The notes beneath the pieces are model-generated. The model made no database searches. It worked only from the letters and a program-made list of their open reading frames with translations, and was not told the DNA's origin. Position numbers and translations under genes: made by a program. Positions 3,778 to 44,928 of a DNA stretch of 64,000 nt are shown here, in pieces. The DNA is taken from the NCBI GenBank assembly GCA_019359235.1, contig JAHHHT010000016.1, positions 62,001 through 126,000 on the forward strand, written 5' to 3'. Within the stretch, counting starts at the first letter, position 1, and every line of letters begins with the position of its first letter. The stretch comes from Oscillatoria princeps RMCB-10. GTDB taxonomy: Bacteria > Cyanobacteriota > Cyanobacteriia > Cyanobacteriales > Oscillatoriaceae.

Positions 3778-3981
3778 TTTTCTCCCTTTGCCTCTTGAAT
3801 CTAATTCCAAACAGCCCCGTAATTAAAGTCATGAACCAGCCGCTTCAGCGCCTCGCGCGCGGCAGCATTTGCCTGCGTCTTTAATCCAGTATATCAGAAA
3901 TAGCCTCCAAATTAATACAGATAGTGGCCTGTTCGGGGTCAGCCAGCAGCGCTTCCGGGAGGGCCGCCAGGACAGCCGGAG

Positions 3982-4380
3982 TCAGAGCCAATGGCGACGG
4001 TTCGCATCGCTCTTGACGTGCCGGTGGAGCTGGCTGGGCTGCCCGACCGCCTCTCCCCCCGAACAGTAGCTTTCCTCATAAATATAACCCACCCCCAAAT
4101 CTCTGCGTGTTTTGTCAAGTATATCAGACTCCCGGAAAGTTTTTTGCAAAACCCCGTCACAAACCGCCCCACCGATATCCCCCTGCGTTTCCTCCGGGTT
4201 GCTGGAGAGCCGAACAATAATAACAGCTGTGGCTTCACCTTTAATCGTCGCTTTAATCTGTTTTGCGGGACTCATCAAGCGCCAGAAGTGACGGATTTGA
4301 TGCTTGCGAAATCTCGATATAACAGAAAAAATGTCTGGCTGTTGCCAAAGTGATATGGCGGTCGGATTGGGAGCGCTCAC
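3982..4380 (-). CDS. Doubtful hypothetical ORF
   Basis: A 132-codon frame beginning MSAPNPTAIS. I recognise no family. The middle (residues about 40-75) is the only part with an ordinary amino-acid mix; the N- and C-terminal thirds are rich in His, Arg and Gln, as is usual for non-coding frames in this genome. No Shine-Dalgarno sequence is evident. It may be a degenerate gene fragment. Confidence 0.15.
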   Translation of the reverse strand: MSAPNPTAISLWQQPDIFSVISRFRKHQIRHFWRLMSPAKQIKATIKGEATAVIIVRLSSNPEETQGDIGGAVCDGVLQKTFRESDILDKTRRDLGVGYIYEESYCSGGEAVGQPSQLHRHVKSDANRRHWL

Positions 4381-4645
4381 CTGACGGACTGAATTTTACA
4401 ATTTAACATTGCTCGACATCTCCCCTCAATTCAAACACCCAGGTTTCAGGTTTCAGGTGTTAGAGGTCAGGTTTCTGGAGTAGCTGACACCTGTCAATAA
4501 CACAGGTGTTGAAGGGTTTGAGAAAATTGATAGAACGCCTAATTCATCCTGCCACAGGCTGATTTAGATTTCAGTTTCCGGTTTGATTTGGCCCCATCTG
4601 GGATAAAATGTGGGCAAGTATATGAGATCACAATTCTATGCAAAG

Positions 4646-4752
4646 TATAGCAGCAGCCACTTAGGTTAGGACGTAGGACAGGCGTTCCCTCCGAGCCGTA
4701 TCCCTACTAGCATGTGAGATACCTTGTCCTAAACTAACTGCCGATTGCTATA
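4646..4752. repeat. Imperfect inverted-repeat element, about 107 bp
   Basis: The left arm begins TATAGCAGCAGCCACTTAGG and the right arm, read in reverse, begins TATAGCAATCGGCAGTTAG. The arms match at roughly three quarters of positions over 26 bp. There is no coding capacity, so this is a probable miniature element. Confidence 0.5.
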
Positions 4753-4784
4753 ATACCATTTGTGCTTAATGACGAAACAGTTAA

Positions 4785-4858
4785 GATCCCCCCCTGCCCC
4801 CCCCTTAAAAAGGGGGGGAACTTTCAAGCCCCCCTTTTTAAGGGGGGGTGGGGGGATC
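4785..4858. repeat. GATCCCCCC hairpin repeat
   Basis: A palindromic element bounded by GATCCCCCC and its complement GGGGGGATC, with an inner CCCCTTAAAAAGGGG arm pair. The same design occurs near 21026-21055, 21387-21457 and 44744-44840, so it is a dispersed family in this genome. It could form a strong stem in RNA. Confidence 0.75.
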
Positions 4859-4904
4859 AGATCCTGAATACTTAGGAGAGCCTTTCCAGACATCTGTGCG
4901 CGTA

Positions 4905-5020
4905 TATAGCGTTTCTCTAATTATTGTGCTACGGAGAAACTCGGTAGGGGCGGTGCCCCCTGCCCGCCCCTACTAAATTGTGTTTATGGGCCACAGTATA
5001 TCAAACTGAGAACTGCTATA
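4905..5020. repeat. MITE-like element, TATAGC family, copy 1
   Basis: The element opens with TATAGCGTTTCTC and closes with the complement of TATAGCAGTTCTC. The same ends bound 37708-37846 with a different interior. It is flanked by TA and has no coding capacity. The interior carries a GTAGGGGCGG...CCGCCCCTAC hairpin, itself a common dispersed repeat. Confidence 0.6.
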
Positions 5021-5139
5021 GGTCAGTTCGGCAACGCCATCAAAGTTTATAAGACAGCCGTCTTGACCCCAAAACTCCGCTCTCTCTAATTCTTGTGAGT
5101 TTCTCACCAGCCCGCGCCCATCTTTAGAGAGCGGTCTGG

Positions 5140-5561
5140 TCAAACTGAATCTTTGATTCCGGATCGGAATTGAATGGAAGTTAGGTATTTTTTTCCCGCC
5201 TTATGGCTGGGGTTTTTCTGTTTTACCAGAACGATAAACTTCTCCCCACGCTTGTTTTTAGCCCGGGCCGAATACGCCTCAAATGAAGCCGTATCAAGCG
5301 CCGCAGCATCACCTAAGTCTTTGCACCACTGTGGGATTATTTCACCCCCCAAAGTCAGAAACTTCTAAATGCCTTCTTGCCAGTCGTTTTTTGTCCTTGG
5401 CTGCTGGTGGAATCAAAGCCTTGATGCTGATGTCGGTTGAAGTAAGCAATAGCGCTGTCACACACTTTGCGGTGTGCGTGAATCCACTGCACCCAAACCT
5501 TCTTTGTTTCCCCTTTGGGATATACCCTGTAAGTCAGGGTCTTCTTTGATATTTTTTTTGT
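5140..5561 (-). pseudogene. TnpB-type RNA-guided nuclease remnant of an IS607 element
   Basis: Only the N-terminal portion of a TnpB protein is left. Residues such as LTYRVYPKGETKKVWVQW and AHRKVCDSAIAYFNRHQ are characteristic of TnpB starts and read from 5561 downward. The frame breaks at about 5360 (one frame stops at 5355; a neighbouring frame continues from 5352 with GGEIIPQWCKDLGDAAALD and ends at 5140). The RuvC acidic residues and zinc ribbon, which lie in the C-terminal half of a 400-500 residue TnpB, are absent. It overlaps the end of the upstream tnpA, as normal in IS607 elements. Not functional. Confidence 0.75.
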
Positions 5562-6123
5562 ACTTGCGGAGTCCGGAGAGCCTGTAACTGAAGAGGTGGA
5601 TGATGGCCATAACATCTTCAAGCATCTCTCGCTCTGGGCTGTAGGGGCAGTCCCCCCGGGGCTGCCCCAAGTGGTTTTTTAGAACCATAATCTCACAGTT
5701 GGATCGCTTTGACAGCCAGGCGATAAGATCGTAACCGAAGCGGCATAATCTGTCTTTGTGGGTAACGACAACCATTCCGACATCGCCTGACAAAATTCGT
5801 TCCAATAAGGCAAGCAAACCTTTTCGTTTAAAGTTGAGTCCCGAACCGATGTCTCTGATGACTTCACAGTCAGGATAGTGAGAGACAAGAAACTCAACTT
5901 GTCTGTCAAGGTCAGTTTTTTGAGAATGCCTGGAAACTCTGGCGTACAGGATGGTTGGTTTACTGGCAGCCGGGGGATTTAGAATTGAGTCGATGTCGTA
6001 TCGGCGCTGTCCGTTTGGCGTTTTAATCGTTTGGATTTTTCCCGCTTCTTCCCACCGGAGGAGGGTTCTAAGTGAAACCCCAAGCTTAGCTGTTGCCACT
6101 CTTGCTGGCACATAGTTGGCCAT
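5458..6123 (-). CDS. tnpA: IS607-family serine recombinase (TnpA)
   Basis: This is the transposase of an IS607-like element, a small serine recombinase. A MerR-like helix-turn-helix occupies the first 50 residues (ARVATAKLGVSLRTLLRWEE), followed by the catalytic domain with YARVSRHSQKTDLDRQ, where Ser in ARVS is the nucleophile, and by VVVTHKDRLCRFG. The ATG at 6123 is preferred because it is the first ATG before the HTH; a TTG at 6168 would add 15 residues. The C-terminus reads on past the usual end (after GLRKYKKNI) into tnpB sequence, giving an odd tail of about 35 residues and suggesting a frameshift there. Its tnpB partner is truncated, so the element is probably dead or needs help in trans. 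Confidence 0.8.
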   Translation of the reverse strand: MANYVPARVATAKLGVSLRTLLRWEEAGKIQTIKTPNGQRRYDIDSILNPPAASKPTILYARVSRHSQKTDLDRQVEFLVSHYPDCEVIRDIGSGLNFKRKGLLALLERILSGDVGMVVVTHKDRLCRFGYDLIAWLSKRSNCEIMVLKNHLGQPRGDCPYSPEREMLEDVMAIIHLFSYRLSGLRKYKKNIKEDPDLQGISQRGNKEGLGAVDSRTPQSV

Positions 6124-6162
6124 CGGCGTCGTCTTACTAAATTTTCTCCAGCCTAGCAAAGA

Positions 6163-6190
6163 TTTCAAGCCTTGTCAAGCCTTGTCAAGC
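6163..6190. repeat. 10-bp tandem repeats at the IS607 end
   Basis: The unit AAGCCTTGTC occurs twice in tandem followed by a partial third copy, just upstream of tnpA. Short direct repeats at element ends are a plausible IS607 recombinase binding site; this role is inferred. Confidence 0.4.
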
Positions 6191-6226
6191 GATGTTTAGT
6201 AAATCGGTTACTGGGAGTTTGCTCTT

Positions 6227-6296
6227 TCCCGTTTTTGGGTCGGAGGGAACGCCTGTCCTACGTCGGGACTTCCCCGTTTTTGGGTCGGAGGGAACG
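6227..6296. repeat. Two copies of a 24-bp direct repeat
   Basis: CCCGTTTTTGGGTCGGAGGG plus AACG occurs at 6228-6251 and 6273-6296, separated by CCTGTCCTACG-type dispersed repeat sequence. No function assigned. Confidence 0.6.
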
Positions 6297-6359
6297 ACAG
6301 GGCGCACAGTTTTGTAAAGTTATGTTAAGGATTAAGTGGGATCTCTACCAAATAGCAGC

Positions 6360-7016
6360 ATGGACATCTACGAGATTGAAGCCGGTTTAAAGAGTTCTGA
6401 TTCGCAAGCTCGTCTGCGGGCGCTCACGGCATTGCGGAACTATGACCCGCCGGTGGCGGTTCCCCTGCTGAAAACCAAACTGCGCGACCCGGAATTTTTG
6501 GTGCGCTCGTTCGTAGCGATGGGACTGGGGCGAAAGCAAACCCCTGAAGCCTTTGACGCCCTGATCGAGCTGTTGAGCAGCGACAGCGATTATAACGTGC
6601 GAGCTGAAGCGGCTAACTCCGTGTCCTTGTATGGAGAATCGGCAGTCCCGCATTTGCTGCGAGCATTTCGCGAGAACAGCCACTGGCTGGTGCGCCGCAG
6701 CATTCTGGCGGCGCTCATGGAATTGCCACAGCCGGAAGCGCTGTTTGAGGTGTGCGCCGGCGCTCTTGCCGACCCTGACTTGACGGTGCGGGAAGCGGCG
6801 ATTGACGCATTTGGCATCTTTGCCGGCACGACTAAACAGGCGGAAGCGCTGCAGCATCTTCTGGCCCACGCCAGTTCTGACTCGTGGCGCATTCGCCTGC
6901 GAGTGGCGCTGGCGCTGAGAAAATTTGACGCCCCACCGGCATTTGAAGCCCTCAGCCGGCTCAGACAGGATCAGGATCATCGGGTTGTAGCCGCCGTCCT
7001 GGAAGGATTGCTTTAG
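6360..7016 (+). CDS. HEAT-repeat protein
   Basis: A 218-residue protein made almost entirely of HEAT/PBS-lyase-type repeats of about 30 residues. The recurring pattern is A..AL...D...V......L.D....VR..A..ALG, with clear units at SDSQARLRALTAL, DPEFLVRSFVAMGLG, SDYNVRAEAANSVSLYG, NSHWLVRRSILAAL, DLTVREAAIDAFG and DSWRIRLRVALAL. Such proteins act as scaffolds; in cyanobacteria relatives include CpcE/NblB-like phycobilisome factors, but nothing here identifies a specific partner. The ATG at 6360 is chosen over an in-frame GTG at 6336 because the family usually begins close to the first helix. It converges with the next gene and overlaps it by 4 bp. Confidence 0.85.
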   Translation: MDIYEIEAGLKSSDSQARLRALTALRNYDPPVAVPLLKTKLRDPEFLVRSFVAMGLGRKQTPEAFDALIELLSSDSDYNVRAEAANSVSLYGESAVPHLLRAFRENSHWLVRRSILAALMELPQPEALFEVCAGALADPDLTVREAAIDAFGIFAGTTKQAEALQHLLAHASSDSWRIRLRVALALRKFDAPPAFEALSRLRQDQDHRVVAAVLEGLL

Positions 7017-7552
7017 CCACTTGCCGATGACAGCCACAGCAAGCTGCCCAGTACCGCAACCGCCACGGCGAGGGCGATCCAAATGAATCGGTTGTCTTTT
7101 GTATTCACCTGGCTGATATCCACCGGCTCGGGTTCGGGTTGCTTTGGGCGCTGAGGGGAACGCTTCACCGAGGACGGATTGCTTACAAGCGCCTCCCGTT
7201 CCTCACCCTTATCCACAGCGGTCAAGTCGGGTATTTCAACTAGCCATTCCGGGCGGGTGCGCAGTTGAGGGGCTTCCAGAATGTAGAGCAACCGGCGTCC
7301 TTGCTTGCGGGTTTCCAGATCGGGGTGCTGCGTCAGCTGGTTGCACAGGGCAATCGCTTCCGAGCGCTGACCGGCAGCTTCGTAAGCCGTCACCAGCCAA
7401 AGAAGCACCTCTCCCCCCAAACTGGAATTGCGCTCAACCACAGCCCTGGCTTTTTCCAAATGCTGCACCGACTGGCGGTACTGGCCACGCTCAAAGGCTG
7501 CTTTGCCCGCCTGGTACTGGGTTTTGACTATTTCTAAGCTTTCCGAACTCAC
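7013..7552 (-). CDS. TPR protein with C-terminal membrane anchor
   Basis: A 179-residue protein. Residues about 8-95 form two to three tetratricopeptide-like helical pairs (YQAGKAAFERGQYRQSVQHLEKA; LLWLVTAYEAAGQRSEAIALC). A Pro/Glu-rich linker follows (QRPKQPEPEPVD), then one hydrophobic helix near the C-terminus (IWIALAVAVAVLGSLLWL, about 157-174). It is likely tail-anchored with the TPR part in the cytoplasm. It resembles a conserved cyanobacterial tetratricopeptide family without an assigned function. The 3' end overlaps the convergent HEAT gene by 4 bp, leaving no room for a separate terminator. Confidence 0.8.
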   Translation of the reverse strand: MSSESLEIVKTQYQAGKAAFERGQYRQSVQHLEKARAVVERNSSLGGEVLLWLVTAYEAAGQRSEAIALCNQLTQHPDLETRKQGRRLLYILEAPQLRTRPEWLVEIPDLTAVDKGEEREALVSNPSSVKRSPQRPKQPEPEPVDISQVNTKDNRFIWIALAVAVAVLGSLLWLSSASG

Positions 7553-35159: not shown

Positions 35160-37451
35160 ATGTCACTAAACGACTCGCCCATCTATTCATCCGCTCTAGA
35201 AGACGCAATTGACCCCTTACCCCTGATTGTTTCACCGGAAACTCCCGTAGCAGAAGTCTTGGCACTGATGAGCCAGGTAAGGAGCAACTGTCGCCTGCCG
35301 GCTGCCAGTCCCTCGTCTGGCGCAAGTGTACCGCCGGAAATCCGGGCCACATGCGTGCTGGTGATGGCAGGTGCCGAGGCGGGGATGTATTGCCCGCTGC
35401 CCGGAAATGAGGCAAACGGCGAGCGACCTATACTGGGGATATTCACAGAGCGGGATATTGTCCGGCTGACTGCTTCCCGCAAAGACTTCAAAAGCTTCAG
35501 GGTGGCTGAGGTGATGACCAAGCAGGTGATTACCCTCGCCCAATCTGACTCTCAGGGGATTTTCACAGCGCTTTCCCTGTTTCGCCAGCACCGGATTCGC
35601 CACCTGCCAATCGTGGACAGAGAGGGAAAGCTGTTGGGGATGGTGACGCCGGAGACGATTCGCAAAGCCCTCCCACCGGCCAACATCCTGACGCGGTTGC
35701 GCTCCGTCAAAGACGTGATGAGCACGCGAGTGATTCAAGCACCGAAAGACGCATCCGTGTTTGAGTTGGCCCAGCTGATGGCTTACCATCACGTCAGCTG
35801 CGTGGTGATTGCGGAACAGCAGGGAAGCAAAGGCGCAGGCTCGCCGGCGAGTGGGGGGCGGAGTGGCGAGCCATCTTCTTCCTCTGTCTGCGTGCCTGCC
35901 GGCATTGTCACCGAGCGGGATATCGTGCAGTTTCAGGCGCTAGAGCTGGATTTGGCCAAAATGCGGGCAAAAGACGTGATGAGTTCCCCCCTCTTCTGTC
36001 TGACTCCAGAGGATTCCTTGTGGTTCGCCCATCAAGAGATGCAGCGGCTGCACGTGCGGCGGATCGTCGTCACCGGCACTCAGGGGGAATTGGTGGGAAT
36101 TGTCTCCCAGACGAGTTTGCTGCAAGCCCTCGATCCCAAGGAAATGTACGGCATCATCGAAGCCCTGCAGCACGCCGTCGAAGAGCGCACCAGCGAGTTG
36201 AAGCAGACCAACGAGCAATTGCAAACAGAGATTTTGGAGCGCCGGCGGGCCGAAGTTGCCCTGCAAGAAGCTCACGACGAGTTGCAAAGACAGGTTGAAG
36301 AGCGCACAGCTGAGCTACAAGCCGCCAATGCCAGACTGTTGCAGGATATCACGGAGCGCCAGCGTGCCGAAGTCGCCCTGCGGCAATCCGAATCTCAAAT
36401 GCGACTGCAAACCCAGCACCTGGCGCAGACCTTGCGCGAATTGCAGCAAACCCAAACCCAGCTGGTGCAAGCGGAAAAAATGTCTTCCCTCGGGCAATTG
36501 GTCGCCGGCATCGCCCACGAAATCAACAATCCCGTGAATTTTATCTACGGCAACCTGTCCTATGCCGGTGAGTATATCCAAGACCTGCTGCGCCTGCTCA
36601 ACCTCTACCGAAAGACCTACCCCGACCCCACCCCTGAAATTAAGGAGGAAACAGAGGCTGTGGAGCTCGATTTCCTGACGGTAGACCTGCCGAAATTGCT
36701 GGATTCCATGAAGCTGGGGGCGGAGCGCATCCGCCAGATTGTCCTGTCTTTGCGCAACTTCTCGCGCCTGGATGAGGCGGATAAAAAGCGGGTTGACATT
36801 CACTCTGGGATTGACAGCACCCTGCTGATCCTGCATCACCGGCTCAAAGCCAAATCGGGACATCCTGCGATTGAGATTGTTAAGGACTACGGCGTTTTGC
36901 CGCCGGTGGACTGCTACGCCGGCACCCTCAACCAGGTGTTTATGAATATCCTCAGCAATGCCATTGACGCCTTGGAGACGACATGCCTCAGGTGTCTGGC
37001 GTCAGACGATGAAACCCTGTGCGCTGAAAGGTGCCCGATGCCAGGAAATGAAGCCGTCAGTAATCACCTGTCTGATGCTTTGGCAAAATCTAGAACCTGC
37101 AACCTGACCTCCCACACACACGCTGAACGCTGTTGCTTGAAACCGGCTATCAGCATTCGCACTGAAATCATAGATAGCAACTGGGTGGCTGTCCGGATTG
37201 CCGACAATGGCCCGGGCATGCCGGAAGAGGTTCGCAAGCGCCTGTTTGAACCGTTCTTTACCACCAAGCCGGTGGGCAAAGGCACCGGTCTGGGGCTGTC
37301 TATTAGCTACCAGATTGTCGTGGACAAACACCGGGGCCGGTTGGAATGCGTCTCTGAACCGGGCGTGGGTACGGAGTTTATTATTCAGATTCCCATCCGC
37401 CAGCAAAAAGTCCCAACCCCTTTGATGTCAAAGGTGAAACTCATCAGCTAG
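35160..37451 (+). CDS. Four-CBS-domain histidine kinase
   Basis: 763 residues. Four CBS domains occupy about 20-110, 115-175, 180-265 and 268-325, with signatures [42 protein letters not shown] and [13 protein letters not shown] pairs bind adenine nucleotides, so the kinase may sense energy state. A long coiled coil (about 335-430) follows, then the kinase core: H-box [18 protein letters not shown]-box [17 protein letters not shown]1 ADNGPGM, F-box [10 protein letters not shown]2 [12 protein letters not shown]1 contains an insertion with [11 protein letters not shown]3 has a Gly/Ser insertion, and the ATP domain has a Cys-rich insertion of about 55 residues containing CPMPGNEA. No membrane segment; no adjacent regulator. 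The core is paralogous to the kinases at 19904 and 27937. Confidence 0.92.
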
Positions 37452-38184
37452 ACAGCAGCTTTTTCCGCGCTGCTTGACGGACATCAATTGTCCCATACAT
37501 AGCAATCTTTTAAGACATCTACATTTTTAAACGAGTTAACAGATACCCAGACAAGGATGTGATATAATCCCAGATTTATTTGATAGAGTTTTAGGGGCCG
37601 GTTTCTCCTGCACAGGAGCAGGTGGGGCCGGTTTCTTGACGATATCTGCCGGTGGCTTGTAGGGGCGGGTTCATCCGAAATATTGGCAGCACAACTGAGA
37701 ATATTAATATAGCAGTTCTCAAATAAGTGTGCCCCAGCGTTTCTCAATTGAATGAGTCTCTTGTAGAGACGCGATAAATCGCGTCTCCCATCCCCAAGAG
37801 CGTGCGGAAACGAAAAACGTACCGCACTGATATGAGAAACGCTATAAACCCGCCCCCCCATAGCCACAATGATGATTAATGCCCGAACCCCCACCCCCCA
37901 GCCTTTCGGAAGTAGGTTTTTAGAGGTTGTCTGTGGCTAGCGCTAGGGGAAGGGCGAAGCATGAGCGAATCTCATCTTTGCACTGATTGCACCAATAGTC
38001 GCGCTCATGCTTCGCCCCTACATCTAATCTGTGTGGGGGCGTTAGCGTAAGCGTTGCGGCGCAAGCACTCTTGAACAAGTGTCCGCCTGCGGAGTGGCAG
38101 CACTCACCGGCAACAATAACCGCAGGCACAACTTGCGATCCTATATGATAGAATCTTAAAAGCAGCTCTCAAAAGAGGTCAACC
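37452..38184. other. Spacer with two miniature elements
   Basis: 730 bp without a gene. It includes the TATAGC-family element at 37708-37846 and a hairpin at 37950-38021 (GGGCGAAGCATGAGCG and its complement) that resembles the duplicated units at 21072-21231. GAGG at 38175-38178 is the likely ribosome binding site of the next gene. Confidence 0.55.
37708..37846. repeat. MITE-like element, TATAGC family, copy 2
   Basis: Begins TATAGCAGTTCTCA and ends with the complement of TATAGCGTTTCTCA, as does 4905-5020. The interior contains a GAGACGCGATAAATCGCGTCTC hairpin. Confidence 0.6.
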
Positions 38185-38520
38185 GTGAAGCCCTTAATTC
38201 AATTTTCCCTGGACGGCGAAGACTCAATCCTGGTGGAAGTGGAGGAACTGCCAGAAAGCGACGGTGACGCCGGATTGGTGGCTATCAGTGGGAACCAAGT
38301 CATCAAAACAGCCCAACAATCCTTTGACGCGGCGCTGGAAAAAATCAAGCCGATGGCTGCGAGCATTATTAGCAAAGTGCGCAGTCTCAGCGATCCGCCG
38401 GATGAAGTGGAAGTCAAATTTGGGGTAAAAATGTCGTCCGAAGCCGGTGCGGTGATTGCCAAAGCCAGCTTAGAAGGCAATTATGAAATTACTCTCAAGT
38501 GGAAGCGGGAGAAACCGTAA
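38185..38520 (+). CDS. Trypsin-co-occurring domain 1 (Trypco1) protein
   Basis: 111 residues from a GTG at 38185 with GAGGTCAACC upstream. The fold signature is a beta-strand pair (IQFSLDGEDSILVEVEEL), a central helix with FDAALEKIKPMAASIISKVR, then DEVEVKFGVKMSSEAGAVIA and a final strand ending ITLKWKR. This matches the Trypco1 (CU044_2847-like) family, small proteins encoded next to trypsin-like conflict-system proteases. Its stop TAA (38518-38520) is immediately followed by the ATG of the protease-NTPase gene, so the two are translated as a unit and probably interact. The biochemical role of the family is not known; a regulator or inhibitor of the partner protease is an inference. Confidence 0.85.
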   Translation: MKPLIQFSLDGEDSILVEVEELPESDGDAGLVAISGNQVIKTAQQSFDAALEKIKPMAASIISKVRSLSDPPDEVEVKFGVKMSSEAGAVIAKASLEGNYEITLKWKREKP

Positions 38521-41500
38521 ATGAGCCAAAGACTCCACCCGGCAATCGTGCGGATTTACCAAGCCACCGGCAAAGTTATCGGCGCTGGTTTCCTGGTTTC
38601 GGAAAAGCACGTCCTCACTTGCGCTCATGTCGTGAATGCCGCACTGGGCAAACAGATGACGGCTTCAGAACAGCCAGCCGGCACAGTTAGCTTGGATTTC
38701 CCCCAAGTTGCGCCGGGGGAAAAGCTGACAGCGCGGGTGGTTCACTGGATACCCGCTTCTTCGCAAAACGCCGCCGCACCGGCAGACGGGGGCACAGATA
38801 TTGCGGTGCTGGAACTGGAAAGCCCGCTTCCCGCTTCCGCCTTCCCCGTGCGACTCGTCACCGACGCTTCCTTGCAGGGGCATCAATTTCGGGTTCTCGG
38901 CTTTCCAGAGGGGCAGCCTGCCGGCGTGTGGACTGACGGTATGATACAGGGCGAGCAAGCCAACGGTCGAGTCCAGATAGAAGTTGTGCGCCAGACGGCG
39001 TATAAAATAGAGCCTGGATTCAGCGGTTCGCCGGTGTGGGATGAGCAGCTGGATGGGGCGATCGGCATGACAGTGGCGATAGACAGCCTGACTGTAGCAG
39101 CAAGCACCAACCCCCCTAAGCGCCCTGAAATCAGGGCGGCTTTTATCATCCCCACCGGCTTGCTGGCCAAAGCTTGGCCGCAACTGGGCCAGCGAGCCAT
39201 TCCCCCCTGCCCGTATCGGGGCTTGTTTGCCTTCCGGGAGGAGGATGCGCGGTTCTTTTTCGGGCGGGAGACGTTCGCACCCCAACTGGTAGAAGCTGTG
39301 CGAACCAAGCCCCTAATGGCCGTAATTGGCCCTTCTGGCAGCGGCAAGTCTTCCGTGGTGTTTGCTGGGTTAATTCCCCAGTTGCGTTCCCAAAACACTT
39401 GGCTGATTGAGGATTTCCGCCCCAGAGATCGCCCCTTCCACCATTTGGCAGCTAAGCTGGTTACCCTGCTGGAACCCCAGATGAGCGAAACTGACCGGCT
39501 GGTGGAAGTTAACAAGCTGACTGTTTCGCTGAAAGGGGGAGACTTAGCGCTGCGGGATGTGGTGAGGCGCATTCTGGAAAAGAATGCCGGCACCCGCCTG
39601 TTGCTGGTGGCGGATCAGTTTGAAGAGCTCTACACCCTCTGCAAGGAGGAGTCAGAACGCCAGCGATTTCTAGACCGGCTGCTGGAAGCCCTAAACGGCG
39701 AGGCGAATTTCCGCCTCGCCCTCACCCTGCGGGCGGATTTTCTCGGATACGCCCTGTCGTACCGCCCCTTTGCCGATGCCTTGCAGAATGCCGACGTGAA
39801 ACTTGGCCCAATGAATCGGCAGGAATTGCGAGATGCCATAGAAAAGCCGGCGCAACTGCTGAAAGTGCGGATAGAGGAGGGGCTGACTGAGCGAATTCTC
39901 GATGACGTACAAAAGTCGCCGGGGAATTTGCCGCTGCTGGAGTTTGCCCTGACGCAGCTGTGGGCCAAACAGCGAGACGGGACACTCACCCATGACGCTT
40001 ACGACGAGATTGGCGGTGTCGAGAAGGCGCTGGCTGGTTACGCCGAGGAGGAATATGGCAACCTGAGTGAGGCTGACAAGCAGCGGGCGCAGCGGGTGTT
40101 TATCCAGCTGGTGCGCCCCGGGGAAGGCACCGAAGACACCCGCCGCACAGCCACCAGGGCTGAGGTGGGGGAAGATAACTGGGATTTGGTGACGCGCTTG
40201 GCAACTTCGCGCCTGGTGGTGACGGCGCGGGATGAGAGTGCCGGTGAGGAGACGGTGGAGGTTGTCCACGAGGCGCTAATCCGGGAGTGGGGAACCCTGC
40301 GCCGGTGGGTGAACGATAACCGCGAGTTCCGCACTTGGCAAGAACGGCTGAAGGCGAGGATGCGGGAGTGGAAGGATGCCGGTGCGGATGATGGGGCGCT
40401 GCTGCGAGGCGCACCGCTGGCACAGGCGGAAAATTGGCACCGGCAGCGTCTAAATGAACTCAGCCCGGAGGAACAAGTCTTCATCCAGAAGAGTTTGGCG
40501 CTGCGGGATAGGGAGATAAAAAGGCGACAGCGCACTGTTATAGGACTTGCCGGTTTTTCGGCGTTCGCTTTTCTGGCAGGATTCGCTGGGTGGGGGTGGC
40601 AGCAAGCCGAAATTAATCAGCTCAACGCTCTTATTCAATCTTCAAAAGCGCTCTCTGCCCCGAATAAAGAACAGGCGCTCACAGACAGTTTAAAAGCCAG
40701 GAAACTTCTCAAACAGGTGTTTTGGGCAGATGCCAGCACCCGAAGTGAGCTTGCAGATGCGCTAACGCAGGCAGTTTACGGGGTGCAACCGCCAAATCCC
40801 TTGGGGGGAGGGCACACAGGTAAAGTCTATAGCGCAGTTTTCAGCCCCGACGGCAAGCAGATTGCTTCCGCCAGTGAAGACAAAACCGTGAAAATCTGGG
40901 ACGCCGACACCGGCAAGGTACTCGTCACCCTCCCCGGGCACAGCAATTATGTCAGAAGCGCAGTTTTCAGCCCCGACGGCAAGCGGATCGCTTCCGCCAG
41001 TAAAGACAAAACCGTGAAAATCTGGGACGCTTTTACCGGCGAGGAAATCCGCACCCTCCGCGGGCACAGCGGTTCTGTGATTAGCGCAGTTTTCAGCCCC
41101 GACGGCAAGCAGATTGCTTCCGCCAGTTCTGACAATACCGTGAAAATCTGGGACGCTTTTACCGGCGAGGAAATCCGCACCCTCCGCGGGCACAGCGATT
41201 CTGCGATTAGCGCAGTTTTCAGCCCTGACGGCAAGCGGATTGCTTCCGCCAGCTATGACAATACCGTGAAAATCTGGGACGCTTTTACCGGCGAGGAAAT
41301 CCGCACTCTCAGTCGGCACAGCAAATATGTCAATAGCGCCGTTTTCAGCCCCGACGGCAAGCAGATTGTTTCCACAAGTGATGACAGGACCGTGAAAATC
41401 TGGGACGCTGGCACCGGCAAGGAAATCCGCACCCTCAACGGGCACAGGCTTTCTGTGAGGAGCGCCGTCTTCAGCCCCGACGGCAAGTGGATTGCTTCCG

Positions 41501-42285
41501 CCAGTGAGGACAGTACCGTGAAAATCTGGGACGCTTTTACCGGCGAGGAAATCCGCACCCTCAGCGAGCACAGCGCTCTTGTCAGAAGCGCAGTTTTCAG
41601 CCCCGACGGCAAGCAGATTGCTTCCGCCAGTGAAGACAAAACCGTGAAAATCTGGGACGCCGACACCGGCAAGGTACTCGTCACCCTCCCCGGGCACAGC
41701 GATGCTGTCAGAAGCGCAGTTTTCAGCCCCGACGGCAAGCAAATTGCTTCCGCCAGCTGGGACAATACCGTGAAAATCTGGGACGCTTTTACCGGCGAGG
41801 AAATCCGCACTCTCAGTCGGCACAGCGCTGATGTCAGAAGCGCAGTTTTCAGCCCCGACGGCAAGCAGATTGCTTCCGCCAGTGGTGACAGAACCGTGAA
41901 AATCTGGGACGCAGACACCTTCAAGGAACTCGCCACCCTCACCGGGCACAGCGATGCTGTCACAAGCGCAGTTTTCAGCCCCAACGGCAAGCGGATTGCT
42001 TCCGCCGGTGATCACAGTACCGTGAAAATCTGGGACGCAGACACCGGCGAGGTTCTCGTCACCCTCAGCGGGCACAGAGGTAAAGTCTATAGCGCAGTTT
42101 TCAGCCCCAACGGCAAGCGGATTGCTTCCGCCGGTGATGACAATACCGTGAGGGTGTGGGATTTGGATTGGGATTTGGACAAGCTAACGAAGCGCGGTTG
42201 CGATTTGCTGCGCGAGTCTTTGAAGAATACTCCCAATGCGAATATCGACCGGCACCTCTGCGATGATGTCCCCGCGTCGCCTTAA
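38521..42285 (+). CDS. Trypsin-nSTAND1 NTPase-TM-WD40 fusion protein
   Basis: 1254 residues. Residues 1-215 are a trypsin-like protease with an intact triad: His36 (VLTCAHVV), Asp93 (GTDIAVLELE) and Ser168 (EPGFSGSPVW). Residues about 230-660 are a STAND NTPase of the nSTAND1 type: entry motif CPYRGLFAFREEDARFFFGR, Walker A VIGPSGSGKSS (270-277), Walker B LLLVADQFEELY, then the helical region with NLPLLEFALTQLW and VEVVHEALIREW. A single transmembrane helix lies at about 673-693 (VIGLAGFSAFAFLAGFAGWGW). From residue 765 to about 1217 there are eleven WD40 blades of 42 residues, almost identical apart from a few positions. Known principle: STAND proteins are kept inactive by their repeat sensor and oligomerise on ligand binding. 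Inference: ligand recognition by the propeller activates the attached protease. Translationally coupled to Trypco1. Confidence 0.92.
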   Translation: MSQRLHPAIVRIYQATGKVIGAGFLVSEKHVLTCAHVVNAALGKQMTASEQPAGTVSLDFPQVAPGEKLTARVVHWIPASSQNAAAPADGGTDIAVLELESPLPASAFPVRLVTDASLQGHQFRVLGFPEGQPAGVWTDGMIQGEQANGRVQIEVVRQTAYKIEPGFSGSPVWDEQLDGAIGMTVAIDSLTVAASTNPPKRPEIRAAFIIPTGLLAKAWPQLGQRAIPPCPYRGLFAFREEDARFFFGRETFAPQLVEAVRTKPLMAVIGPSGSGKSSVVFAGLIPQLRSQNTWLIEDFRPRDRPFHHLAAKLVTLLEPQMSETDRLVEVNKLTVSLKGGDLALRDVVRRILEKNAGTRLLLVADQFEELYTLCKEESERQRFLDRLLEALNGEANFRLALTLRADFLGYALSYRPFADALQNADVKLGPMNRQELRDAIEKPAQLLKVRIEEGLTERILDDVQKSPGNLPLLEFALTQLWAKQRDGTLTHDAYDEIGGVEKALAGYAEEEYGNLSEADKQRAQRVFIQLVRPGEGTEDTRRTATRAEVGEDNWDLVTRLATSRLVVTARDESAGEETVEVVHEALIREWGTLRRWVNDNREFRTWQERLKARMREWKDAGADDGALLRGAPLAQAENWHRQRLNELSPEEQVFIQKSLALRDREIKRRQRTVIGLAGFSAFAFLAGFAGWGWQQAEINQLNALIQSSKALSAPNKEQALTDSLKARKLLKQVFWADASTRSELADALTQAVYGVQPPNPLGGGHTGKVYSAVFSPDGKQIASASEDKTVKIWDADTGKVLVTLPGHSNYVRSAVFSPDGKRIASASKDKTVKIWDAFTGEEIRTLRGHSGSVISAVFSPDGKQIASASSDNTVKIWDAFTGEEIRTLRGHSDSAISAVFSPDGKRIASASYDNTVKIWDAFTGEEIRTLSRHSKYVNSAVFSPDGKQIVSTSDDRTVKIWDAGTGKEIRTLNGHRLSVRSAVFSPDGKWIASASEDSTVKIWDAFTGEEIRTLSEHSALVRSAVFSPDGKQIASASEDKTVKIWDADTGKVLVTLPGHSDAVRSAVFSPDGKQIASASWDNTVKIWDAFTGEEIRTLSRHSADVRSAVFSPDGKQIASASGDRTVKIWDADTFKELATLTGHSDAVTSAVFSPNGKRIASAGDHSTVKIWDADTGEVLVTLSGHRGKVYSAVFSPNGKRIASAGDDNTVRVWDLDWDLDKLTKRGCDLLRESLKNTPNANIDRHLCDDVPASP
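40813..42170 (+). repeat. Eleven 126-bp coding repeats (WD40 blades)
   Basis: Units are 126 bp with long stretches identical between copies, such as the DNA for SAVFSPDGK and TVKIWDA. Differences cluster at the residues after the leading His (TGK, SNY, SGS, SDS, SKY, RLS, SAL, SDA, SAD, SDA, RGK) and in the pair before the Asp of the SxD turn (E, K, S, Y, D, E, E, W, G and variants). Blades 1 and 7 share the same core and tail. Confidence 0.95.
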
Positions 42286-42310
42286 TACCGTGTCGTTGAA
42301 CTGCCGCAAT

Positions 42311-42763
42311 TCAGTTACCCGACGTAGGACAGGCGTCTCGCCTGTCCTGTGGGGGCTTCCCTTGCAGCCAAACCTTCGCCTCTTCCAAATCCTTGAAATA
42401 TACCATTTCCAAGTCCAGCTTTTCCGTCCTTTTTTCTAGATCCTTAGCCGACAGCGCATTAAAACTGTTCCGCGAGACAACAAAAGCCGTGTATCGCAAA
42501 CCGGCATCTACTGCCCGGGGGATAAAATCCTTTTCCTGCCACTCATTCGTTTGCGCCCAAGGCCCTTTCGCCAAGAAAGTGTCCACCAGCAACTTGTTAC
42601 AATTATACTCTTTTATCATCTCCAATATAGCTTCGCACCCTTGCTTTACTATATCGTAAGTAACAAAGTTATTCCAGCTTGCCAGCAGCCAGCCATTGGC
42701 GGCGTCATATTCTATCCGGCAAAAAAGTTCGCCGAGTTCGTTTTTCAATTCCCACTTGTCCAT
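42311..42763 (-). CDS. STAS/SpoIIAA-like small protein (tentative)
   Basis: 150 residues. The layout is a strand pair with WLLASWNNFVTYD, a helix (VKQGCEAILEMIKEYNCNKLLVD), a second strand-helix unit (AGLRYTAFVVSRNSFNALS) and ELDLEMVYFKDLEEAKVWL at the end. This order resembles STAS/SpoIIAA-type proteins of 120-130 residues, but I cannot confirm it. The last 15 residues (from KPPQDRRDACPTSGN) are encoded by a copy of the dispersed GACAGGCGTCTCGCCTGTC palindrome, so the original C-terminus was probably replaced or extended. It is convergent with the STAND gene, with 25 bp between the stops. Confidence 0.6.
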   Translation of the reverse strand: MDKWELKNELGELFCRIEYDAANGWLLASWNNFVTYDIVKQGCEAILEMIKEYNCNKLLVDTFLAKGPWAQTNEWQEKDFIPRAVDAGLRYTAFVVSRNSFNALSAKDLEKRTEKLDLEMVYFKDLEEAKVWLQGKPPQDRRDACPTSGN

Positions 42764-43043
42764 AAGTTAAAATTTAATTAGGCTGAATTGACTCGCTTTG
42801 CTCGCTCCCGTATAGGGGATAAGAGAATCAGAATGCTTCGCCAGCGTACCCTTGTTTGCATATACACCCTGGCGATTGAAATCGCGGCTATACAAACAAA
42901 GCCCGCCTGCGCGGGCTAAATAAACCCGTATCCCCTCTCACAACCCTGAACCTAAAAGGCGGATAACCTCTCTCTTGCCGGCACCCTTTGCGCCAGAAAA
43001 ACGGGACGCTCCCGAATGCCCCTCTGCGCATTCTCCCACTATT
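42764..43043. other. Spacer with a GCCCGCGCAGGCGGGC-type hairpin
   Basis: AAAGCCCGCCTGCGCGGGCT near 42899-42918 is a hairpin, and GTATATACACCCTGGCG sequence lies beside it. A related sequence occurs near 27027-27050. No gene is seen. Confidence 0.45.
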
Positions 43044-44054
43044 TTACCACTCACTCACCCGACTGTCAACCACTGCTTTGCAGAATTGCAGCAGCGCATC
43101 TTCCGGGAAATCGCATTTGGCGAAGTTGGCTATCACGGAGACAAACTGCACATTTCCCGGCACATATCCGAGGGACGAATCTATCCTGTCCAGACTCGCC
43201 CGTCTGGGGTGGAGTTGGCGATTTTCCCAATCGTTGGTTGTTTCGGGATTGTCCAATTCCCAGCCGGTGTAAGGGCATCGCCCGCCCTGTTTTTCCCACA
43301 GTTCCTTCAAATATTGCACGGTGATAGTGCACTGCCGGTCTTTGCCTTTGACGCGCCGTCTCGCCAATTTGAGATGCTGGCGAAAGGGAGAGTATTCATC
43401 GCGCCGGTTCTCCTGTCTAGCCGGTTCGGCCATCAGTTGGGGTAAAGTGTTAATATTGCACTCACCGGCATCCGCTAAAGGGCAGTAGCTGTTGTGCTCC
43501 TGTCCCCAGAAGCCGGTGACTGCATAGCAAAATTCAAGGAATAGCTCTTCCGGGAAAGCGTGTTTTGCAAAATTAGCGATAGCGGCGACAAATTGGATAT
43601 TGTCGGGCGTGTATCCTTTCGACGAATCCCGCCGGTCAACACTAGCGCGGTTGGGTGTTAAAGGCATCCCTAAATAGCTTGTTGTGCAAGGTAAAAGCAC
43701 TAACTCCCATCCCGTATAAGGACAAATCCCTTGCTGCCGCTCCCACACCTGCTTGATATCGAGCAGGGTGACAGAAGACTCTTTGTTCCTGTGCTTAACG
43801 GATTTTTTTATAAATTTCCAACAATATCTAAAAGGAGAATACTCATCTTGCCTGATTATGTCTCTCAAGTAAGAAGTATCAGTATTTAGCTTGCCTTTAA
43901 AGTTTTTTATGCCATAGACTTGTGCGGAACACTTGAGAGAGCAAAAATGCTGCCGGCCTAGCCTTTCACTGCGATTAAACTCAGCTCGCTGCTTGGTAAA
44001 CTGCTTCCCACAAGCTGGATTTGCACAAGTTAGAGTTACTGCCGGTTGTCTCAT
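43044..44054 (-). CDS. Tandem HNH-like endonuclease-type protein with N-terminal zinc finger
   Basis: 336 residues from the ATG at 44054. The N-terminus has a four-Cys finger (TCANPACGKQF then FCSLKC). Two copies of a domain of about 130 residues follow, at about 65-185 and 215-332. Each contains EYSPFR, a helical stretch ending Q-x-G-x-CPYTGWEL, then P-x-RAS-x-DR-x-DSS-x-GY-x-P-x-N-x-QFV, IANFAK, FPE and FC-x-AV. The DR-x-D-x-S-x-GY-x-P-x-N pattern is that of the HNH/GIY-associated phage nucleases in which His is replaced; a classical HNH His is not obvious at the DR position, so catalysis is uncertain. It lies directly downstream of tmRNA, a common integration site, and may be mobile cargo. 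Confidence 0.65.
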   Translation of the reverse strand: MRQPAVTLTCANPACGKQFTKQRAEFNRSERLGRQHFCSLKCSAQVYGIKNFKGKLNTDTSYLRDIIRQDEYSPFRYCWKFIKKSVKHRNKESSVTLLDIKQVWERQQGICPYTGWELVLLPCTTSYLGMPLTPNRASVDRRDSSKGYTPDNIQFVAAIANFAKHAFPEELFLEFCYAVTGFWGQEHNSYCPLADAGECNINTLPQLMAEPARQENRRDEYSPFRQHLKLARRRVKGKDRQCTITVQYLKELWEKQGGRCPYTGWELDNPETTNDWENRQLHPRRASLDRIDSSLGYVPGNVQFVSVIANFAKCDFPEDALLQFCKAVVDSRVSEW

Positions 44055-44073
44055 ATAGTGTCCCCAATAAGCT

Positions 44074-44103
44074 AAAAACCGCCCTAGTGAAATAGGGCGG
44101 TTT
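44074..44103 (-). terminator. tmRNA terminator
   Basis: AAACCGCCCTA and TAGGGCGGTTT form an 11-bp stem around a TTTCAC loop; read on the minus strand it ends GGTTTTTAGC. Confidence 0.8.
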
Positions 44104-44123
44104 CTATTAGCAAAACTGATCCA

Positions 44124-44513
44124 TGGAGATGAGCGGAGTTGAACCGCTTTCCGCGATAGGTATTAACCCCCCACTCGTTCACAGGCATAGCCCTTCTAAC
44201 CCTCAGGGCGGGAACCATCCATTATCCCGGATGACAGGATGCTCTGATTAAATCTTTTCTAGCAAGCCAACCAGAGAACACTTGCTAGAGCATCCGTTGG
44301 GGTTTTGTCTGCAGCCTTTAACGGAGTCGGACTACAGACGCTCGAACCTGATTAGAGGTTAGTTAGGCAACCACAAGGGCTTCCTTACGAGCAAATTTTA
44401 CGATGTTATTCGCATTTACTTTTTTTTTGAACCCGGTATTTACGAGAGAAGGCTCACTCTCGGCCTGCATCACAGGGTAGTGTTCGCCACCACGTCGAAA
44501 CCGTGACATCCCC
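44124..44513 (-). ncRNA. ssrA: Transfer-messenger RNA
   Basis: Rescues stalled ribosomes by trans-translation. On the minus strand the 5' end GGGGATGTCACGGTTTCGAC is diagnostic, and the 3' end GCGGTTCAACTCCGCTCATC plus TCCA forms the T-arm and acceptor stem; GGGGATG pairs with CATCTCC with one G-U. CCA is not encoded. The tag reading frame encodes ANNIVKFARKEALVVA followed by TAA, inside a region containing GCGAATAACATCGTAAAATT. Pseudoknot-forming stems follow. A TATAAT lies at 44529-44534 upstream. The length, 390 nt, is typical of a one-piece cyanobacterial tmRNA. Confidence 0.97.
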
Positions 44514-44581
44514 GTGCTTTCTTTTTTGATTATAGTCCAATATTTTCACCGGCAGGAGAATGCCAGCCGTTTTCAGGTCGT

Positions 44582-44626
44582 GATAACCGATTCTTCTTAT
44601 TCGGTTAACCGAACCTCAGGGAAAAA
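44582..44626 (+). repeat. 45-bp direct repeat with a perfect palindrome, copy 1
   Basis: TTCGGTTAACCGAA at 44600-44613 is a perfect 14-bp palindrome flanked by AACCGATT upstream and CCTCAGGGAAAAA downstream. The same arrangement recurs at 44884. Confidence 0.75.
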
Positions 44627-44883
44627 GACCAACCGCAGGACCGGAGGGAGCGCCTGCCGGCTCGCCCCATCGCCCAAATCGGCAACAGCAGCGCTGCTGT
44701 GCCGGTTTATAGCGGGCAAGTATCTGGGTGGAGTACAGTCTGGAGATCCCCCCTTGCCCCCCCTTAAAAAGGGGGGCTTTGAAATGTCCCCCCCCCTTTG
44801 TAGGGGCGGGTCCCCGTGCCCGCCCCGGCTAGGGGGGATCTAATATCTGTACCTCACTCGGTTGAAATCTGCTATTAGATAGT

Positions 44884-44928
44884 GAGAACCGATTGTTTTT
44901 ATTCGGTTAACCGAACCTCAGAGAAAAA
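44884..44928 (+). repeat. 45-bp direct repeat with a perfect palindrome, copy 2
   Basis: TTCGGTTAACCGAA at 44902-44915 with the same flanks as copy 1. It lies about 100 bp before the start of the LpxB-related gene. Confidence 0.75.

What the first reader, a model, noticed from the sequence alone, without database searches (positions are those of the whole stretch)
38185..42285. Candidate immune/conflict switch: Trypco1 + trypsin-nSTAND1-TM-WD40
Seen: a Trypco1-type protein whose stop codon abuts the start of a protein with an intact trypsin triad (H36, D93, S168), an nSTAND1 NTPase (Walker A 270-277), one membrane helix and an 11-blade WD40 array. Known: STAND NTPases with repeat sensors and protease effectors, together with trypsin-co-occurring domains, have been proposed by Aravind and colleagues as NTP-dependent conflict systems enriched in multicellular bacteria. 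Inference: this locus is a self-contained, membrane-tethered sensor-protease that may act in phage defence or programmed death, with Trypco1 as its regulator.
Basis: partly seen in the sequence, partly recalled or inferred. Interest (0 to 1): 0.85.

Follow-up and report, generated by a model that had tools for sequence, protein, structure and literature searches.

The report
Hypervariable bacterial immune-type receptor with protease
A cyanobacterium carries a two-gene, NLR-like sensor-protease whose repeated recognition blades vary at nearly the same positions as fungal self/non-self receptors, which makes a role in defence or strain recognition likely and testable, although no function has yet been shown.

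Summary
38185-38520 is Trypco1 (PF19493, 9.8e-27). 38521-42285 is trypsin-like (H36/D93/S168), nSTAND1 (4e-123), one hydrophobic helix, then 11 WD40 units of exactly 42 aa. The conflict reading is strengthened, not proven.

New evidence: (1) the units vary most at a few positions, where pN exceeds pS. Five of the seven positions used to type fungal HET-D/HET-E repeats are among the six most variable columns here, and the same offset fits best in 17 of 17 highly repetitive WD40 arrays examined. (2) The locus lies between a histidine kinase and tmRNA. It is intact here and array-broken in one congener; in the other, Trypco1-trypsin is replaced and the rest broken; one related genus lacks it. (3) G000 and G001 arrays share 1 of 11 barcodes although the fronts are 90% identical. 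(4) Trypco1-trypsin-nSTAND1 fronts carry other sensors elsewhere; nSTAND1 paralogues here carry caspase or CHAT fronts.

Best reading: an NLR-like receptor with a diversifying propeller sensor and protease effector. Components, repetitive WD40 and variable hotspots are published; the combination and positional match were not seen in my searches. New variant of a known kind.

The parts
38185..38520 (+). Trypco1 gene (111 aa, GTG start, AGAGG-like ribosome site upstream); stop codon abuts the next start
   Evidence: PF19493 9.8e-27
38521..42285 (+). trypsin-nSTAND1-TM-WD40 gene (1254 aa)
38533..39081 (+). trypsin-like peptidase domain (residues 5-187); triad codons H36 38626-38628, D93 38797-38799, S168 39022-39024
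39211..40392 (+). nSTAND1 NTPase (residues 231-624); Walker A 39328-39351, Walker B-like LLLVADQFE 39598-39624
40534..40590 (+). hydrophobic segment, candidate single membrane helix (residues 672-690)
   Evidence: hydropathy only
40810..42195 (+). 11 WD40 units of 126 nt; most variable unit positions 23, 5, 4, 42, 7, 25
42196..42282 (+). C-terminal tail, 29 aa after the last unit
37452..44123 (.). stretch of 6.7 kb between the histidine-kinase gene and the tmRNA 3' end; holds the pair plus two small genes; 214 nt at the matching place in G004
42311..42763 (-). 150-aa protein of unknown family, found in 3 of 60 genomes (own included), all of this genus; probably neighbour cargo, not part of the system
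43044..44054 (-). 336-aa HNH-like protein (weak Cas9 HNH matches); neighbour, split into several ORFs in both congeners
44124..44513 (-). tmRNA gene, flank of the stretch
35160..37451 (+). CBS-domain histidine kinase, flank of the stretch

Best explanation
The locus encodes an NLR-like receptor in which one chain carries effector, switch and sensor. The WD40 propeller(s) bind a ligand through a surface made mainly of unit positions 4, 5, 7, 23 and 25, and that surface is renewed by repeat shuffling and diversifying selection. Ligand binding lets the nSTAND1 NTPase oligomerise at the membrane and brings the trypsin domains together. The activated protease cleaves itself, a partner or host proteins, leading to growth arrest or death of the invaded (or mismatched) cell. 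Trypco1, encoded just before it with no gap, is a close partner, most simply a brake or assembly factor. Shown by computation: families, catalytic and Walker residues, unit structure, where variation lies and pN>pS there, array differences between congeners, front-end replacement, gene decay, a site without the locus. Inferred: ligand binding, oligomerisation, membrane insertion, protease activation, death outcome, role of Trypco1.
For: Domains. Aligned trypsin domains keep H and D in 26 of 26 and S in 25 of 26. Front end under purifying selection between G000 and G001: dN/dS 0.37, Trypco1 0.13. The seven positions that PMC12222747 uses to type fungal HET-D/E repeats hold 13.0 of 30.1 bits of the array's column entropy, reached by 7 of 200000 random 7-column sets. 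The same offset is best of 42 in 17 of 17 arrays examined; pN at positions 4, 5, 7, 23, 25 exceeds array-wide pS in 16 of 17. Orthologous arrays share 1 of 11 barcodes and have 11 versus 14 units. Front replaced and gene broken in G002, array broken in G001. A trypsin-like ORF starts within 345 nt downstream of Trypco1 in 29 of 34 Trypco1 genes surveyed. Other sensors on the same front: regulator-type propeller and FGE. Other fronts among the nine strongest nSTAND1 genes of this genome: caspase in 3, CHAT in 3. Experimental precedent for trypsin-like peptidases plus an NLR ATPase causing lysis: LypABC, and the Lysobacter CARD-NLR system it resembles (PMC13236601, passages read).
Against: No functional data: no ligand, no cleavage target. 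PADLOC gave only partial matches: HEAT-ARM_XIII 2.1e-42 through the WD40 part, and RT-Protease_XI 1.2e-7, LmuA 1.2e-6 and Avs1b 8.7e-5 through the trypsin part. Propeller closure with 11 units is unexplained. The match to the fungal set is not complete: column 42 is the fourth most variable here and not in the set; position 3 varies modestly and position 32 hardly. Variable hotspots in highly repetitive WD40 proteins are published (PMC5587647), so this feature alone does not prove immunity. Array L178 shows pN below pS and L161 an interval including zero. The G001 comparison uses a 66%-complete genome whose source is a MAG, and repeat arrays are hard to assemble. A Trypco1 lies beside a caspase-nSTAND1-WD40 gene with no trypsin ORF seen next to it, so Trypco1 is not strictly a trypsin partner.
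Confidence: 0.6

Rival explanations
1. A phage-defence (abortive infection) receptor of the Avs/CARD-NLR kind that binds phage proteins. This is a narrower form of the best explanation, not an addition to its odds.
For: STAND plus protease architecture; CARD-NLR precedent; locus easily broken or lost.
Against: Avs1b profile match only 16-18 bits; no CARD or gasdermin seen in the scans made. No Trypco1 relative among 20 candidate stretches in viral contigs, which says nothing about ligands.
Confidence: 0.4
2. An ordinary regulatory protease-scaffold: repetitive WD40 as a young, stable docking platform for host proteins, diversified for different partners without immunity.
For: Hu et al. 2017 give this reading for highly repetitive WD40 (section 11); [quoted passage not shown]
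Against: Presence and integrity vary within one genus; front and sensor modules differ between relatives; pN>pS at the variable positions in 16 of 17 arrays is not expected of constant partners.
Confidence: 0.25
3. The array is diversified by a diversity-generating retroelement (template-directed mutagenesis).
For: At positions 4, 5, 7, 23 and 25 of the window array no codon ends in C (0 of 55), while 226 of 385 codons outside the seven-position set do; in several arrays the third base is nearly fixed per column; DGR-diversified nSTAND1 targets are published (PMC10907252).
Against: No template seen: with the first 4 units as query, the best-scoring match outside the gene is 69% over about 450 nt; shorter matches reach 91% over 33 nt and 87% over 58 nt (40 of 68 candidates were scored). 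None of 4 reverse-transcriptase matches is on this contig. Simulation shows that selection alone gives as much third-base fixation: observed ratio 0.72, null 0.83-0.84 at omega 1, 0.59 at omega 3, 0.29-0.36 at the limit.
Confidence: 0.04
4. A decaying remnant without present function.
For: Broken in 2 of 3 genus members held.
Against: Both window ORFs intact with the catalytic residues; dN/dS 0.37 and 0.13 against G001, although part of that signal predates decay in G001.
Confidence: 0.07

Closest known systems
Trypco1/trypsin-VMAP-MoxR-vWA ternary conflict systems (Kaur et al. 2020, PMC7159879)
   Same: Trypco1 gene beside a trypsin-like peptidase fused to a signalling core.
   Different: Core is nSTAND1-WD40, not VMAP; no MoxR or vWA among the five neighbours scanned. 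Relatives L081 and L090 carry trypsin-VMAP.
nSTAND1 conflict proteins with exchangeable fronts (PMC8195603) and DGR-targeted nSTAND1 sensors (PMC10907252)
   Same: Same NTPase clade; EAD or effector fronts including caspase and trypsin; FGE sensors in relatives L072 and L083.
   Different: Sensor is a repetitive WD40 array with no retroelement template found; Trypco1 pairing with nSTAND1 not in the passages I read.
WRAP, STAND with highly repetitive WD40 (PMC9218822, passages; that 2ymu is WRAP, from Nostoc, is recalled)
   Same: 2ymu is the best PDB sequence and fold match to the array; STAND fusion; rapid turnover and frameshifts reported.
   Different: 14 blades in two propellers there, 11 units here; trypsin front plus Trypco1 here, versus coupling with a TIR-STAND gene there.
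Fungal HNWD receptors HET-D/HET-E (PMC12222747)
   Same: 42-aa units, usually 11 highly conserved repeats, largely the same variable positions, NTPase plus N-terminal effector.
   Different: HET effector and NACHT there; three extra cryptic blades there, none recognised here; fungal, so similarity is probably convergent or reflects blade geometry.
CARD-NLR systems (Lysobacter; Caulobacter LypABC, PMC13236601)
   Same: Trypsin-like peptidase activity plus NLR-like ATPase.
   Different: Several proteins with CARD, TPR-like sensor and other effectors; here one chain plus Trypco1.
Apaf-1 / apoptosome
   Same: STAND NTPase with WD40 propellers controlling a protease; PDB matches 3sfz, 3j2t.
   Different: Separate caspase; 15 unlike WD40 blades in two propellers (recalled).

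Membership tests
Trypco1 (PF19493) | Score above curated cut-off | tested here: met
   93.9 bits versus 24.6
Trypco1 (PF19493) | Neighbouring trypsin-like peptidase | tested here: met
   0-nt gap; a trypsin-like ORF starts within 345 nt in 29 of 34 surveyed (window included), 26 by phmmer and 3 by motif only
S1 trypsin-like peptidase | Family score and His-Asp-Ser triad | tested here: met
   PF13365 1.3e-19; triad
nSTAND1 (PF20703) | Score above cut-off, Walker A and B | tested here: met
   412 bits versus 27.1; motifs
VMAP/MoxR/vWA ternary system | VMAP-C in the peptidase protein; MoxR and vWA neighbours | tested here: not met
   No MoxR, vWA or VMAP match in five neighbouring proteins; in P0002, 25 of 71 Pfam matches were shown and none is VMAP, nor in its pieces 1-235 and 626-765
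Avs (AVAST) | Full-length match to an Avs profile | tested here: not met
   Avs1b 16-18 bits over the trypsin part only, cut-off 1500
CARD-NLR | CARD-like domain before the peptidase | tested here: not met
   Trypsin domain starts at residue 5, leaving no room in the chain; no CARD in Pfam scans. A diverged CARD on another gene would escape this test
Highly repetitive WD40-STAND (WRAP type) | Unit identity over about 60% and STAND fusion | tested here: met
   Median unit identity 0.71; nSTAND1 in the same chain
Highly repetitive WD40-STAND (WRAP type) | Two complete 7-bladed propellers | tested here: inconclusive
   11 units; AF2 pTM 0.69, one of five models confident; lowest rmsd 5.8 A among 50 PDB rows shown. 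The broken G001 array has 14 units
HNWD-type diversifying sensor | Variation concentrated at repeat positions 10, 11, 12, 14, 30, 32, 39 | tested here: met
   As a set: 7 of 200000 random sets reach it, about 0.0015 if all 42 offsets are allowed for. Individually positions 11, 12, 14, 30, 32 (4, 5, 7, 23, 25 here) are highly variable, 10 (3) modestly, 39 (32) hardly. Offset found by best shift; strand d starts one residue after position 1 in the AF2 model
HNWD-type diversifying sensor | Excess of non-synonymous change at these sites | tested here: met
   pN 0.57 at positions 4, 5, 7, 23, 25 versus array pS 0.17; bootstrap lower bound of the difference 0.30
HNWD-type diversifying sensor | Repeat-number polymorphism among strains | not testable with these tools
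   Only between species: 11 versus 14 units
HNWD (fungal family itself) | HET effector domain | tested here: not met
   Trypsin instead
DGR target | Template repeat and nearby reverse transcriptase | tested here: not met

The most novel reading that the evidence does not exclude
Filamentous cyanobacteria run a bacterial counterpart of fungal heterokaryon incompatibility: families of STAND receptors with repetitive WD40 sensors, diversified at the same blade positions as HET-D/HET-E, which recognise non-self (a kin-variable host protein or an invader) and kill by protease, caspase or CHAT fronts exchanged between receptors. The Trypco1-trypsin receptor is one allele class of such a system.
Probability: 0.15. 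Interest if true: 0.88.

Novelty: new variant of a known kind. Interest (0 to 1): 0.55.

Why it matters
It turns a general proposal (STAND plus protease equals conflict system) into a testable one: the residues that should set specificity are named, and natural alleles in congeners give the material. If the shared variable positions mean shared use, then fungi and cyanobacteria reached the same recognition surface on the same blade, and a bacterial model for NLR self/non-self recognition becomes available.

Tried and rejected
Diversity-generating retroelement: the codon pattern at hypervariable positions looked like template-directed mutagenesis, but no template was seen in the genome (40 of 68 candidates scored), reverse-transcriptase matches lie on other contigs, and a simulation of selection alone explains the third-base pattern.

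Island attachment repeats: the tmRNA 3' end faces the locus, but no copy of its last 60 bases (15-30 nt stretches, 85% or more) was found across 37301-44100. Insertion near tmRNA therefore rests on one genome without the locus (G004), which could also be a loss.

Viral carriage: 0 of 20 candidate stretches in IMG/VR encoded a Trypco1 relative.

Trypco1 fold: AF2 with 4 sequences gave mean pLDDT 59 and pTM 0.43, too poor for a fold search, so none was run. No PDB relative by sequence (one match at E 0.94).

The 167-aa ORF that replaces the front in G002 has no Pfam match at E 0.01 and no relative in G000, G001, G003 or G007; whether it is an adaptor is unknown.

Dropped rows: 3 of 20 arrays with median unit identity below 0.65 were left out of the 17. 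The 20 come from loci already fetched and from the 30 loci returned by a 292-genome search with window repeats, and only contiguous 42-aa units are seen, so they are not a random sample; some are relatives (two arrays each in L162 and L164, genomes of one genus; three arrays from the window's own genome). L082 duplicates L062 and was left out when I counted the Trypco1 survey; two weak or divergent Trypco1 genes (L068, L108) are outside its 34. The trypsin alignment leaves out ORFs under 140 aa (L078), the three motif-only ORFs and L082, and holds two ORFs of L095. Five nSTAND1 genes of this genome with E 1e-34 to 1e-38, and weaker ones, were not examined for fronts.
Full report
What is there. 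The two ORFs are exactly as described. The first is Trypco1 (PF19493, 9.8e-27; NF041216). Its stop codon TAA is followed directly by the ATG of the second gene, and both starts have purine-rich sequence upstream, so translational coupling is likely (inference). The second is 1254 aa: trypsin-like domain (PF13365 1.3e-19) with H36, D93 and S168, nSTAND1 231-624 (4e-123), a hydrophobic helix at 672-690 and 11 WD40 units of 42 aa at 764-1225. Among 26 aligned trypsin domains, window included, H and D are present in 26 and S in 25, the exception being a truncated ORF.

Host. The window is part of an 8.49-Mb genome in 60 contigs. The nearest named relative found is Oscillatoria sp. Prado101, whose contig has the same length and gene coordinates as that of the same-genus genome G001. 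So this is a cyanobacterium close to Oscillatoria, filamentous by recalled knowledge of that genus; the species is not known.

The sensor is a highly repetitive, hypervariable array. Blocks of 300 nt stepped by one unit are 83-92% identical to the first block, the last one 65%; median protein identity between units is 71%. Most columns are nearly frozen, while positions 4, 5, 7, 23 and 25 (numbered from the G of GH) carry 6, 6, 5, 7 and 4 different residues. The six most variable columns are 23, 5, 4, 42, 7 and 25. In Podospora anserina, PMC12222747 (abstract and passages read) reports 42-aa repeats, usually 11 highly conserved repeats in functional alleles, and seven positions (10, 11, 12, 14, 30, 32, 39) used for typing because of high dN/dS; its introduction and PMC4986451 (passages) speak of four positions under diversifying selection. 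With an offset of 7 the seven are 3, 4, 5, 7, 23, 25 and 32 here. They hold 13.0 of 30.1 bits of column entropy, a value reached by 7 of 200000 random 7-column sets; the next best of 42 circular shifts gives 7.7. Allowing for all 42 offsets the chance is still about 0.0015. The match is not perfect: position 3 varies modestly, position 32 hardly, and column 42 is variable but not in the set. The offset was found from the data; it agrees with that paper's statement that a repeat starts with strand d, because the residue at position 1 directly precedes a strand in the AF2 model.

This is not peculiar to one gene. I collected 20 arrays of five or more contiguous 42-aa units from the loci held and kept the 17 with median unit identity of at least 0.65. 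In 17 of 17 the same shift is the best of 42; the random-set test is weakest for L178 (684 of 20000) and L161 (266 of 20000). Mean within-array variability is highest at 5, 7, 23, 4 and 25, with or without the window array. pN at those five positions exceeds array-wide pS in 16 of 17 (not in L178); the bootstrap lower bound is above zero in 15 of 17 (not in L161 or L178). For the window array pN is 0.57 against pS 0.17, while pN at the other positions scored is 0.045. These arrays are not independent or randomly sampled. Hu et al. 2017 (PMC5587647, section 11 read, other passages) already noted that highly repetitive WD40 proteins, half of them bacterial and a third fungal, vary at interaction hotspots. 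What I add is the positional match to the fungal receptors, the pN/pS result and the receptor context.

The array differs strongly between congeners. Between the window and G001 the trypsin-nSTAND1-linker part is 90% identical in protein with dN/dS 0.37, and Trypco1 has 0.13. Over all unit pairs constant array columns are 83% identical and the six barcode columns 24%. Taking for each window unit its best partner in G001, one of 11 barcodes is identical, one is at 0.83 and the other nine at 0.33-0.67; G001 has 14 units against 11. The G001 array is broken: four one-base-longer junctions of the same kind lie between different unit pairs, plus one stop codon. The same lesion in four places is what unit-to-unit copying would give. 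G001 is 66% complete, its source is a MAG, and PMC12222747 warns that short reads misassemble such arrays, so this needs long reads.

The locus itself is variable. In the 3 genus members held the order is small gene, histidine kinase, this locus, 150-aa gene, HNH-like gene, tmRNA, LpxB-like gene. In G002, window positions 37605-39207, that is Trypco1 and the trypsin domain up to residue 229, have no blastn match; about 1.15 kb of other DNA with a 167-aa ORF lies there, the nSTAND1 part is broken and the array is reduced to about two units. Since the remainder is broken I cannot tell whether the replacement was ever a working exchange. In G004, another genus of the family, the histidine kinase and tmRNA genes are 214 nt apart, against 6.7 kb here. 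In the other four family genomes examined (G003, G005, G006, G007) tmRNA is near the LpxB-like gene, but the histidine kinase was not seen on the stretch fetched. So absence rests on one genome, and a loss in G004 is possible. The 150-aa neighbour was found in 3 of 60 genomes, own included, all of this genus.

Modularity on both sides. Of 34 Trypco1 genes surveyed, window included, 29 have a trypsin-like ORF on the same strand starting within 345 nt downstream (26 by phmmer, 3 by motif only), and in 8 of 34 it is fused to nSTAND1 (nSTAND1 by the search). The survey started from similarity to the window's Trypco1. C-terminal parts after nSTAND1 include WD40 (L074, L076), regulator-type propeller (L071, and L085 whose front is off the contig) and FGE-sulfatase (L072, L083). 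Two others carry trypsin-VMAP (L081, L090), the setting in which Trypco1 was defined (PMC7159879, passages read). In this genome the nine strongest of 29 nSTAND1 matches have fronts of trypsin (the window), caspase (3), CHAT (3), EAD8-like (1, slightly below cut-off) and none recognised (1). Trypco1 is common in the class: 102 of 194 genomes.

How it probably works. By analogy with characterised STAND receptors, the array senses, nSTAND1 switches and the trypsin domain acts. Closest experimental support: in Caulobacter LypABC the catalytic serines of both peptidases are needed for lysis, and its NLR-like ATPase falls with the Lysobacter CARD-NLR defence proteins (PMC13236601, passages read). 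Whether the trigger here is a phage product or a variable host protein, as HET-C is for HET-E (PMC12222747; PMC12881547, passages), cannot be told. Trypco1 as brake or assembly factor is a guess from conservation and coupling; a second Trypco1 in this genome lies divergently beside a caspase-nSTAND1-WD40 gene, which argues against strict trypsin specificity.

Is it known? Eight searches of the held library: 'Trypco1' gave two papers; nSTAND1+trypsin+WD40 gave two; four joined WD40 with STAND or NLR and with hypervariability, internal conservation or selection; one asked for highly repetitive prokaryotic WD40 and one for anti-phage bNACHT/STAND with WD40. In the passages I read the Trypco1 plus trypsin-nSTAND1-WD40 pair was not described, nor in the passages the positional match between cyanobacterial arrays and fungal receptors. 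Most subscription journals and preprints are outside that library, and I read passages, not whole texts; other listed papers were seen as listings only. Published and therefore not new: each domain, exchangeable fronts on nSTAND1 (PMC8195603, passages), repetitive WD40-STAND proteins with turnover and frameshifts in cyanobacteria (PMC9218822, passages), and variable hotspots in such repeats (PMC5587647).

Verdict. Observation confirmed; interpretation partly supported and sharpened. New variant of a known kind, interest 0.55. It would rise sharply if strain-level data showed allelic recognition arrays.

Noticed in passing
L068:7545-7928 and 3879-7403 (G000:C38): A second Trypco1 of this genome lies divergently, 141 nt away, from a caspase-nSTAND1-WD40 gene; no trypsin ORF was seen beside it.
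   Followed up: partly
window 44124-44513: ARAGORN's tag peptide for the window tmRNA looks misassigned; ANNIVKFARKEALVVA, the tag it reports for G001, can be read on the minus strand near 44362-44412; G002 differs from it by one residue.
   Followed up: partly
window 43044-44054: HNH-like protein with weak Cas9 HNH matches, its two halves look alike by eye, directly beside tmRNA; split into several ORFs in both congeners.
   Followed up: no
G002, locus L151:9078-9581: 167-aa ORF of unknown family sits where Trypco1 and trypsin are in the window; no relative in four other genomes searched.
   Followed up: partly
window 44575-44626 and 44877-44928: 52-nt direct repeat, 88% identical, each copy containing the palindrome TTCGGTTAACCGAA, between tmRNA and the LpxB-like gene; blastn pieces suggest both copies also in the two congeners.
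   Followed up: no
L161:1498 onwards (G250:C3): WD40 array with seven almost identical consecutive units (median identity 0.98), apparently a very recent amplification.
   Followed up: no
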